Shown: positions 59,706 to 63,558 of the stretch, in pieces | Layout of the letters: the number at the start of each line of letters is the position of its first letter | Position numbering within the stretch: position 1 is the stretch's first letter | DNA from: Polytrichum commune | Taxonomy: Eukaryota > Streptophyta > Polytrichopsida > Polytrichales > Polytrichaceae | Assembly (NCBI GenBank): GCA_950295325.1 | Contig: OX485807.1 | Span: 39,710,440 to 39,774,439, forward strand | Direction of reading: 5' to 3' | DNA: 64,000 nucleotides | Notes under the pieces: model-generated | What the model saw: the letters and a program-made list of their open reading frames with translations, nothing else | What the model was told of the DNA's origin: nothing | Databases searched by the model: none | Program-made: the position numbers and the translations under genes

Positions 59706-61656
59706 AGTTTTGAAGGTTGTTAAATGCATGTCGACTGAAGATATGTATACGAATTTCATTTCCCAACACCTACCAAGAGGGGGGTGCGTTAAAAGCTTGC
59801 CCCCCTCCTGTATGTTTGTATGGTTGCTAATTCATTCTACTTTAGATTCAATATTTCAATTTGGAATCTATGACTTTGGATTATGTGTTGATTTGGCTTT
59901 AGTTAGAGATTTTCATGTTCTACGGAGCAATCAACATTTTCACCCTCTCCCTTGGTAAGTGCTAGGAAGCATCGTCCATTGTTTACGCTACATAGGTGGT
60001 TGTGGTTTAGTTAATGACCACAATCAATGGCAACTATGATTGATTTTTATTTATTTATTTAAACTTGTTGTGTACAAATTCATGTGGTTGTCATTGATGT
60101 TGGGGTCGGTCTTTTATATCACGATCTACCAATAGTCAAGGTCTTGGACTTGGAAAGAAAATAGAATATTATTATCCTTGTTGGCTTTCGATTGCAATGT
60201 TAGAGTGCTTGTCACCTCAACTTTCTCCTTGGACTTTGGTCTTGCAGCTCACTACACTAAATATGATATTTCGTGTTTGATACATTAAATACGATCGCAT
60301 ACACTAAATGTCAACAACCTTATGAAAGTAAGTAATATTAAATGTAAAATCAAACACTAAATATCAACTATGGTAATATGTGAAGGTTACATGTTTGAAT
60401 TAAGTGTTAGTAAGGACATGAATTTTTTTTTTATAGTGCTAGCACTTTCCCTTCAGAGAGTTTGTTTCAAGTAGGTAGGTACTACAAGCCCTCTGCCCCA
60501 TTCAGACAATGATAAAAGGAGAATACTAGCATATCTTCTAGTATACCTTTTTAACACTGATGATAAGGAAACGAGAATTAGTGTTAAGCCTCATGTGGTC
60601 ACTTTTCTCTATTGGACACATATATATGAGTGGTACATGTATGGCAAAATTCGTCGGTAAGGATGGCCACCATAAATACATGTGTTATGGTGACATTGGA
60701 TTATATGCTCGCAATATAATAACCATACAAATGGTCACTTGTAAAACAAACTTGGGAGGGCTCATGTGTTCACTTAAAGAGAAGGACGATCTTCACTCTG
60801 ATTGCCTATAACTTGCACCTCACTCCAATCTTAAAACTTGAAATGACAATTTGTGTGATATGCCATTGTTAACTAGATAACTACATTGATTATCCCAATT
60901 GTTTGAGTTTGTGTTACTATTTGGAATCATGCTGTACAATAGCATCTTACTAAGGAGCTTAAATTTTTACTAACAAAAGTTTAATAGGTTGTTCATATAT
61001 TATAGAACATAAATGACTTTGCTTGGTGAATATTACATTTTAAACAAATATTTATAACACTACATAACTCCAAATAGTAACACGTGCAAATTTGGGTATC
61101 AATGTAGATAACATGTTTTTCAGTTCCATCCAATGGTCAAAGTTTTTGTGGACTTGGAAGGTTAAAGGGTGCTCTTTGCAAAAAAGAAAAAAAGAAAAAA
61201 GAAGAAGAAAGAGGTTCCCCAAATACTTTATGACCGAACTTTGGTTTAGTTATTTATACATACCCAAGGGCCAAAAATACCCAGTATGTTAAGTGAAAAA
61301 GAGCAAGAAAAAGTTTATGTGAAAATTTGTGAGTTCCTATAAAATAGAATGAAAACCACTCCCCTCCTTTTTGCATCAACCTCGTATAAATGACATAAAT
61401 TCAAATACATGACACACATTTGTTAACATGATTTATATGACATGTGATTGTATTTTCACTTCATGTTTGATGTAGGATGTGTTCAATACCCTAAATCCGA
61501 TGTGTAATTCAACTTAGACAAAGTTTCAATATTTGGTACAAAAATTGTCACACAACATCATGTGATCAGCTCCAACCTCTTAAAAAAACGATGTGAAAGT
61601 TGGATTGAAACAAAAGACATCCTCAAGTAGACCCGAACATACGGTAATTTCAATCA
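59706..61656. other. No gene recognised
   Basis: AT-rich. Includes copy 4 of the dispersed repeat (about 60600-60810) and, at about 60250-60320, fragments resembling CACTAAATAG MITE ends. Confidence 0.4.
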
Positions 61657-61661
61657 CATAG

Positions 61662-62759
61662 TGTAATGTAACTAGAATTATTAAGGAATATTCTAACTAC
61701 ATGTGTCAGTGTGTAAGTAGAGAAAGATGAGAGCTAGACAACTCTCAGTTGAAGATGAATGGATAGGAGTAAAACAACTCCAGATTGACAACATGTGCAC
61801 TGGAGTTAGACAGCTCCGCATTTTAGTGCATTGGAATTAGACTATTCCAATTGAGAACATGTGCACGTGAGTTAGACAACTCTCGATGAGGTGCACGGAG
61901 TTAGACCACTCCATATTTGGAAAGATGAATGTTATTCATTGGAGTTAGACAACTCTCAATGAATAGATAAAGTTAGTTGGAATTAGACAGTTCTAACTAG
62001 AAGATTGAATGAATGAATTAGTTGGAATTAGACAGTTCCAACTAAAAGAATGAATGGCTGAACTAGTTGGAATTAGACAGTTCCAACTAGAAGATGGAAT
62101 GGATGAACTAGTTGGAATTAGATTTGTTACAAACCTCTCAACAATATCACGACAGTTGGTTTCACGACAACATTATCCCAAAGTAAAGAATTGAAACAAA
62201 CACAATTTATTTCTTTATGGTTCTTTATGGTTCTTTCTATCTTTACATATAGTAAAAGTATTATATTCATAGCTCTATCTTCTAGTTCTACTATGAATCT
62301 TCTATCTTTGGTTCTTCTCAAACTTTCTTCAAGTTGGAACTGTCCAACTCCAACTTAGTTTATCCATTCCATCTTCTAGTTGGAACTGTCTAATTCCAAC
62401 TAATTCATTCATTCAATCTTCTAGTTGGAACTCTCTAATTCCAACTAGCTTTATCTATTCATTGAGAGTTGTCTAACTCCAATGAATAACATTCATCTTT
62501 CCAAATATGGAGTGGTCTAACTCCGTGCACCTCATCGAGAGTTATCTAACTCACGTGCACATGTTCTCAATTGGAATAGTCTAATTCCAATGCACTAAAA
62601 TGCGGAGGTGTCTAACTCCAGTGCACATGTTGTCAATCTGGAGTTGTCTTACTCCTATCCATTCATCTTCAATTGAGAGTTGTCTAGCTCTCATCTTTCT
62701 CTGTTTACACACTGACACATGTAGTTAGAATATTCCTTAATAATTCTAGTTACATTACA
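61662..62759. mobile_element. Foldback element, 1098 bp, arms built of mini-hairpins
   Basis: Starts TGTAATGTAACTAGAATT and ends with the complement. The two arms (about 61662-62110 and 62335-62759) are near-perfect reverse complements, separated by about 225 bp. CATAG flanks both sides (61657-61661, 62760-62764), a possible 5-bp duplication. Each arm carries about ten small inverted repeats of the form GGA(G/A)TTAGACA(A/G)(C/T)TCC. No transposase is visible in the spacer. Confidence 0.9.
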
Positions 62760-62764
62760 CATAG

Positions 62765-63558
62765 ACCAAGTCAAATTTCACTTTTGGTACTTGTTGGGGA
62801 CTACACCGTTTATGGTGTTGATGTCATGTACATTAATTTCGAAGGGCCTAAACTAGATGTCCAAAGGTCTGAAAGTGCCACGCCCATTAATTGTCAATAT
62901 AATACTATTTGTTAAAATAATTTTTTTTAAAGTTATTATACTTAGCGTAGCATATTGGGATACTTGAGATGATAGATTATGCATTTTAGTATGCAAGGGG
63001 AAGATATTATTGATCGTACTCATGGCAAGTGTCAATACATTTCAGTATGCAAGAGGAGGATATTCTTGAACGTATTAATATCAAGTATCATTTGTGTACA
63101 CTTCAGTCACATTGTAGACCATCACGTAACATAGGCACGCACTTCATAACACTATTGAACATACTCATGCCAAGATATTAATAAGTGCATTTGAACACCG
63201 AGTGTCATGAGGTGGCACGAATGATTGAGTTGTTGATCATTAGTGTCACCTAACATACGCCTCAAAATTGTGTAAATGACACTCTTATGCATGTGACACT
63301 AAATACCTTAAACGATGTACAATGTATATGATATTTAGCATCACTTACTATTGGGAACTACACAATCGCTATAACTATTTATCGAGAATGTAACATCTTA
63401 CCAAGTAAAGTCATTTATGCTCTATAATGCTTGACCAACCTAACAACCTTTCGCCAGTAAAAACTAGACTCCTGAATAAGAAGTCTTACTACATTGCGTG
63501 GCTCCAAACAATAAGCGACACTAAAGACCACAAAACGGTGTAGTACAAACCATTACGT
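62765..63558. other. No gene recognised
   Basis: AT-rich sequence with short direct echoes (for example GTATGCAAG(A/G)GGA at about 62990 and 63045). Nothing coding. Confidence 0.4.

What the first reader, a model, noticed from the sequence alone, without database searches (positions are those of the whole stretch)
61662..62759. Foldback element whose arms are arrays of about ten mini-hairpins with a conserved TTAGAC loop
Seen directly: two long inverted arms, and inside the left arm small palindromes with cores near 61735, 61770, 61806, 61837, 61872, 61901, 61945, 61983, 62028 and 62072. Spacing is 29-45 bp, and the loop (TTAGACA or a variant) is kept while the stem sequence changes in a compensated way (GGAGTT/AACTCC, TTGGAAT/ATTCCAA, GTTGGAA/TTCCAAC). 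Stem variation with retained pairing suggests selection on, or a copying mechanism dependent on, hairpin structure. A transcript could fold either as one long duplex or as a row of hairpins. I know of no named family with this architecture.
Basis: partly seen in the sequence, partly recalled or inferred. Interest (0 to 1): 0.85.

Follow-up and report, generated by a model that had tools for sequence, protein, structure and literature searches.

The report
Palindromic double LTR from reverse transcription
The apparent foldback transposon is two end-repeats of a plant retrovirus-like element, joined tail to tail and inserted as one piece, which points to a reverse-transcription accident whose palindromic product could still be integrated.

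Summary
In detail: two 97% complementary 405-nt arms, each an array of mini-hairpins. The interpretation changes. The arms are the 5' (U3) part of the ~800-nt LTR of a multicopy Ty3/gypsy chromovirus-type retrotransposon; the LTRs sampled carry the same array. On the minus strand the window element is a nearly whole LTR (R-region deletion), then AAT (the 3 nt between LTR and primer-binding site), then an inverted LTR fragment (461 to 1). Both outer ends are U3 ends, flanked by CATAG, a 5-bp duplication as is usual in the family. A second, unlike case (L014) has 726-nt identical arms, a junction 12-13 nt into the primer-binding site with filler, and CCACC duplications; 5 of 5 fetched unoccupied copies of its target repeat show one CCACC. 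So that palindrome existed before integration, and the window's most likely did too. Best explanation: two LTR reverse-transcript ends were fused tail to tail by template switching, and integrase inserted the two-U3-ended molecule. Whether both arms came from one template is open. Two such elements were found in capped lists of 169 LTR starts. The hairpins show between-unit compensation; their role is undecided.

The parts
61657..61661 (.). left copy of the 5-bp target-site duplication CATAG
   Evidence: 38 of 55 solo-like LTRs of the family have a perfect 5-bp duplication
61662..62122 (+). left arm: LTR positions 1 to ~461 (U3), ending in the loop of a hairpin unit (TTAGA|CA)
61725..62089 (+). 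array of ten mini-hairpin units in the left arm (26-nt units starting at 61725, 61761, 61797, 61828, 61863, 61892, 61936, 61974, 62019, 62064)
62122..62124 (-). junction ATT: on the minus strand AAT, the three bases between LTR end and primer-binding site of full elements (A at 62122 can belong to either side)
62125..62759 (-). inverted, nearly whole LTR (U3-R-U5 with R-region deletion), 635 nt
62217..62232 (-). patch AACCATAAAGAACCAT (minus strand) replacing about 143 nt between TATA-like and AATAAA-like sequence of the LTR (142 nt in L009, 144 in L003); in no other locus held except L001 and L006, which are this same place
62334..62696 (-). hairpin array of the right arm, lacking one 45-nt unit present in the left arm
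62760..62764 (.). right copy of the target-site duplication CATAG

Best explanation
The element is a tail-to-tail, two-U3-ended LTR dimer of a Ty3/gypsy chromovirus-type retrotransposon. During reverse transcription the end of one LTR copy, at the edge of the primer-binding site where plus-strand strong-stop DNA and the unprocessed right end of the cDNA lie, was joined to the inside of an inverted second LTR copy. The joining was by template switching (onto itself as a snapback, or onto a second plus strand in the same particle), or less likely by host end-joining. The resulting linear palindrome has a U3 terminus (TGTAATG...) at each end, and integrase inserted it with the normal 5-bp duplication. 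Shown: LTR identity, two U3 ends, duplications in both cases, an empty site for the second case, junctions at LTR end + AAT and LTR end + AAT + PBS. Inferred: that the joining took place before integration also in the window case (from the duplication alone), that reverse transcriptase did it, and how. Not settled: one template or two.
For: LTR identity, PBS, PPT and TSD. Window: U3 ends outward, CATAG on both sides, junction LTR-AAT-inverted LTR. L014 at C2:10222544-10224117: same architecture, arms 726 of 726 identical, junction LTR-AAT-TGGTATCAGAGC plus ~30 nt filler, CCACC on both sides. Empty site with one CCACC in 5 of 5 fetched copies of the target repeat, 93-94% identical to the joined flanks. 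L014 filler starts with a 10-nt inverted copy of its own LTR/PBS edge; 350 of 200,000 random fillers held any such 10-mer. L065 has 5 PBS nt and a repeated U5 end inside a perfect ACTAG duplication: another accident at the same place that seems to predate integration. No two U5 ends faced outward within 3 kb among the 92 U5 ends (read by eye; the pattern misses diverged U5 ends such as the window's own). Window arms share one extra T, in a T run, absent from the 74 other rows.
Against: Only two cases. The window arms differ by 9 substitutions and one 45-nt unit; each arm's nearest row by identity is another copy. The tree puts the right arm with 27 other rows apart from the left arm on a supported branch (95/87), and holding the two arms together is near rejection (p-AU 0.054). 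So a single-template snapback is doubtful for the window; two co-packaged templates fit better. About 20 nt of L014 filler has no source found and could be host end-joining filler. No empty site was found for the window element. No cDNA data.
Confidence: 0.77

Rival explanations
1. Rearrangement after integration: two neighbouring LTRs in opposite orientation, or one nested in the other, fused by deletion or inversion.
For: Neighbouring inverted LTRs exist (L011: two solo LTRs, each with its own duplication; L005: an inverted LTR piece next to a solo LTR). The window arms look like two different LTR copies on the tree.
Against: The outermost flanks of both palindromes carry one perfect 5-bp duplication (CATAG; CCACC), and 5 of 5 fetched empty L014 sites show a single insertion. 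The inner LTR has no duplication of its own at the junction. L014's junction keeps primer-binding site, which a solo LTR lacks.
Confidence: 0.08
2. Joining of two unintegrated LTR cDNA fragments by host end-joining in the nucleus, followed by integrase insertion through the two U3 ends.
For: About 20 nt of unplaced filler in L014 and 1-nt microhomology in the window, both usual for plant end-joining (recalled).
Against: The 10-nt inverted copy at the start of the L014 filler looks like polymerase snapback, though repair polymerases can also make such copies.
Confidence: 0.13
3. A foldback DNA-transposon family, or a self-propagating hairpin family.
For: Long inverted arms, short duplication.
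Against: Arms are LTR U3; the two palindromes differ in junction, subfamily and target; no third was seen among the 169 listed starts.
Confidence: 0.02

Closest known systems
Template-switching complex LTR retrotransposons (Sabot and Schulman 2007, PMC1950507; whole main text read)
   Same: Abnormal strand transfer in reverse transcription makes a rearranged cDNA, inserted as one unit; a flanking 5-bp duplication is the argument.
   Different: Theirs are head-to-tail LTR-internal-LTR-internal-LTR with normal U3/U5 ends. Here an inverted LTR dimer with no internal region beyond AAT/PBS and two U3 ends.
Solo LTRs of Ty3/gypsy chromovirus-type elements
   Same: Same LTR, same 5-bp duplication, no internal region.
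   Different: A solo LTR has one U3 and one U5 end; this has two U3 ends and is palindromic.
DIRS-1 (passages of PMC5633606)
   Same: Inverted LTRs.
   Different: DIRS-1 is a tyrosine-recombinase element with ORFs between its inverted LTRs; full elements here have direct LTRs, Ty3/gypsy-type domains and the solo LTRs 5-bp duplications.
U3 tandem repeats as transcription elements, e.g. tobacco Tnt1 (passages of PMC3601003)
   Same: Tandem repeats in U3 upstream of the TATA-like sequence.
   Different: Here about ten diverged units each keep a palindromic stem and a TAGAC core; no regulator or test known to me.
Foldback transposons (search listing only: Tm1 PMC3169594, Tetris PMC4079207)
   Same: By name, long inverted arms; Tetris is linked with satellite repeats.
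   Different: The Tm1 title says Mutator/Foldback and the Tetris abstract start says DNA transposon; the arms here are LTR-derived.

Membership tests
Ty3/gypsy chromovirus LTR retrotransposon (for the arms) | Arms match LTRs that flank an internal region with PBS and PPT | tested here: met
   L009 and L010 LTR pairs, TGGTATCAGAGC 3 nt after the 5' LTR, GGGGGAGAT before the 3' LTR
Ty3/gypsy chromovirus LTR retrotransposon (for the arms) | gag-protease-RT-RNase H-integrase with chromodomain | tested here: met
   Pfam on five separate L010 pieces: Ty3_capsid, RVP_2, RVT_1 (29.4 bits, just under its 29.6 cut-off), RT_RNaseH, Integrase_H2C2, Chromo; the fifth piece had no match, and no integrase catalytic-core match came up in the pieces scanned
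Ty3/gypsy chromovirus LTR retrotransposon (for the arms) | 5-bp target-site duplication | tested here: met
   38 of 55 perfect, 12 of 55 with one mismatch, 5 of 55 with two or more
Template-switching complex insertion | Rearranged unit flanked by one target-site duplication | tested here: met
   CATAG, CCACC with empty sites
Template-switching complex insertion | Three LTRs in direct order with two internal regions | tested here: not met
   Two inverted LTR copies, no internal region beyond AAT/PBS
Foldback DNA transposon | A family of copies sharing the same inverted-arm structure | tested here: not met
   Two unlike cases in capped lists; the other sampled copies are single LTRs or LTRs of full elements
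DIRS | Tyrosine recombinase and no target duplication (the latter recalled) | tested here: not met
   5-bp duplications and an integrase zinc-binding domain in L010; no tyrosine recombinase among the Pfam matches of the pieces scanned

The most novel reading that the evidence does not exclude
Plus-strand LTR DNA of this family regularly pairs tail to tail because U3 is an array of self-complementary hairpins. The resulting two-U3-ended palindromes are integrated as ready-made inverted repeats, whose transcripts would form long double-stranded RNA and could trigger silencing of the whole family.
Probability: 0.15. Interest if true: 0.8.

Novelty: new variant of a known kind. Interest (0 to 1): 0.5.

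Why it matters
A two-U3-ended insertion with a proper target duplication is a natural test of two questions: whether a Ty3/gypsy integrase can act on two U3 ends in a plant, and what happens to strong-stop DNA that fails its strand transfer. It also gives a route by which an LTR retrotransposon can create long inverted repeats in one step, which annotation could file as foldback or MITE-like elements. Ten searches of the paper library returned no such insertion in the titles, abstract starts and passages that I saw; subscription journals are mostly not held, so this does not show that it is unpublished.

Tried and rejected
Foldback transposon family: rejected, arms are LTR U3. Rfam on 61600-62800: one sub-threshold CRISPR-repeat match, E 0.2, taken as chance. 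Nested insertion and later fusion: disfavoured by the outer duplications and the L014 empty sites. LTR dimers joined U5 to U5 within 0-30 nt, exact pattern only: none. U5-outward pairs within 3 kb: none among 92. An empty site for the window: the left flank gave one other match (90 nt, 75%) that did not span the site; the right flank from about 62800 is a high-copy repeat. Source of the L014 filler: only the locus itself and one 2-mismatch hit. One template for both window arms: the shared T speaks for it, but it lies in a T run; the tree and the clade test, p-AU 0.054, speak against it. I had first rated sisterhood as supported and withdrew that on re-checking; confidence lowered from 0.78 to 0.77. 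Strand test of the stems: G-T cells outnumber A-C cells 140 to 66 over 180 distinct units, slightly favouring sense RNA pairing, but the copies are not independent, so I give it little weight. L046 also has a repeated U5 end; no LTR start was found in the piece where its 5' LTR was expected, so its duplication was not tested. Rows left out: searches dropped six rearranged LTRs (L021, L022, L027, L031, L052, L074) and the duplicates L012 and L013, of 80 LTR starts 12 had no U5 end found and 8 PBS-flanked and 5 PPT-flanked ones were set aside, leaving 55. The 60 LTRs were chosen leaving out most same-strand pairs about 5.3 kb apart, so the share of solo LTRs is inflated. One search uses coordinates copied by hand from capped lists (100 of 113, 100 of 259 and 100 of 278 places) plus four, so two elements among 169 starts is not a genome-wide count.

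Full report
What is there. The window holds two arms, 405 nt and 97% complementary, 290 nt apart, within an element at 61662-62759 flanked by CATAG. Each arm is an array of mini-hairpins with a TAGAC core; nine regular left-arm units pair at 6.44 of 7 positions against 2.88 for all positions, and the left arm folds with z near -7 as RNA on either strand and as DNA.

What the arms are. The left arm has 630 first-look candidates in the window's genome (407.8 Mb in 64 contigs), of which 40 were scored. Fetched loci show that it is the first ~460 nt of an LTR of 707-864 nt. Full elements have two direct LTRs, mostly about 5.3 kb apart, TGGTATCAGAGC three bases after the 5' LTR (I recognise it from memory as the tRNA-iMet primer-binding site) and GGGGGAGAT before the 3' LTR. 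Pieces of L010 match Ty3 capsid, protease, RT (just under cut-off), RNase H, integrase zinc-binding and chromodomain models, so the family is of Ty3/gypsy chromovirus type. Of 55 solo-like LTRs examined, 38 have a perfect 5-bp duplication, 12 one mismatch and 5 two or more. The LTRs held carry 3 to 12 exact hairpin cores each; 77 of 82 rows carry 7 or more.

What the window element is. On the minus strand it reads: an LTR from U3 through U5 with about 143 nt between the TATA-like and AATAAA-like sequences replaced by AACCATAAAGAACCAT, then AAT, then an inverted LTR from position ~461 to 1. Both outer ends are U3 ends, TGTAATG, and the outer flanks carry CATAG. AAT is what lies between LTR and primer-binding site in full elements; since minus-strand synthesis starts at the tRNA (established knowledge), this junction coincides with the unprocessed right end of the linear cDNA.

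A second case. Listing LTR starts by pattern (100 places shown per call) and pairing 169 distinct starts gave two close pairs with U3 ends outward: the window and C2:10222544-10224117, locus L014. L014 has arms identical at 726 of 726 positions. Its minus strand is LTR, AAT, TGGTATCAGAGC (12 nt, or 13 with the next A), about 30 nt of filler, then an inverted LTR from 726 to 1. It is flanked by CCACC. It lies in another repeat (230 first-look candidates): in 5 of 5 fetched unoccupied copies the joined flanks align across the site with a single CCACC (93-94% identity). The L014 palindrome was therefore inserted as one unit. For the window the same is inferred from its duplication, whose chance is about 1 in 1024.

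One template or two. The window arms differ by nine substitutions and one 45-nt unit; at most of the nine sites the odd base is rare or absent in the other rows, as mutations after insertion would be. Both arms share one extra T, in a T run, absent from all 74 other rows, and a T found in 4 of 74. Against one source: each arm's nearest row by identity is another copy, a supported branch (95/87, bootstrap not settled) sets the right arm with 27 others apart from the left arm, and holding the arms together costs 7.6 log units, p-AU 0.054. Two closely related RNAs in one particle fit somewhat better than a snapback of one strand. L014 cannot decide, since its arms round to 100% identity with many copies.

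How it probably formed. Junctions at LTR+AAT and LTR+AAT+PBS are where plus-strand strong-stop DNA and the unprocessed cDNA end lie. The L014 filler begins with AATTTATTAC, an inverted copy of the GTAATAAATT just upstream, as if the 3' end had folded back and been extended; 350 of 200,000 random fillers held any 10-nt inverted copy of the upstream 72 nt. A third locus, L065, is a solo LTR whose U5 end runs on into five bases of the primer-binding site and then repeats the U5 end, inside a perfect ACTAG duplication. So accidents at this place before integration are not unique to the palindromes. Host end-joining of two cDNA pieces remains possible; about 20 nt of the L014 filler has no known source.

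The hairpin array. Between-unit compensation is supported by three measures (cells paired, cells changed on both sides, covariation score; 0 of 500 shuffles each) and not by two others (221 and 222 of 500). Two inner pairs and several core bases never vary. A palindromic protein-binding site with a conserved centre would look the same as an RNA hairpin. U3 tandem repeats that may regulate transcription are known (Tnt1, in passages of PMC3601003). G-T cells exceed A-C cells two to one, a weak hint at sense RNA. The window's inverted junction lies in a hairpin loop, and so does the outer break of an inverted LTR piece in L005; two cases prove nothing.

Comparison. Sabot and Schulman (PMC1950507) described head-to-tail complex elements flanked by duplications and explained them by template switching. 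This is the inverted counterpart, without an internal region and with two U3 ends. It is not a member of that class by its order of LTRs, but it works like it. The ten library searches returned nothing that describes it in the titles, abstract starts and passages I saw; I read one paper's main text through and passages of four others.

Noticed in passing
L065 (C7:26747150-26748069), minus strand: Solo LTR with an aberrant U5 end: AATTGGTA plus a repeated GAGGTTTGTAACA between LTR end and a perfect ACTAG target duplication.
   Followed up: partly
L046 (C3:48813233-48814152), minus strand: 3' LTR whose U5 end is repeated, the two copies differing (GGTTTG and GGTTCG), as if from two templates.
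   Followed up: partly
L005:1229-1498: Inverted LTR piece (positions 372 to 103) directly beside a solo LTR; its outer break lies in a hairpin loop at the same phase as in the window.
   Followed up: partly
L013:1-670 and 1816-2485: Another 99.7% identical inverted pair with 260-bp internal direct repeats, outside the LTR match.
   Followed up: no
window 62800-63100: High-copy repeat just right of the element (3335 first-look candidates; the 39 other scored places 74-80% identical).
   Followed up: no
C1:72840113, C2:26540862, C2:48105278, C3:9883416, C7:16311242 and others: Full elements with LTR starts 5302 bp apart and LTRs at or near 100% identity (as rounded) with L014: a recent burst of this family.
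   Followed up: no
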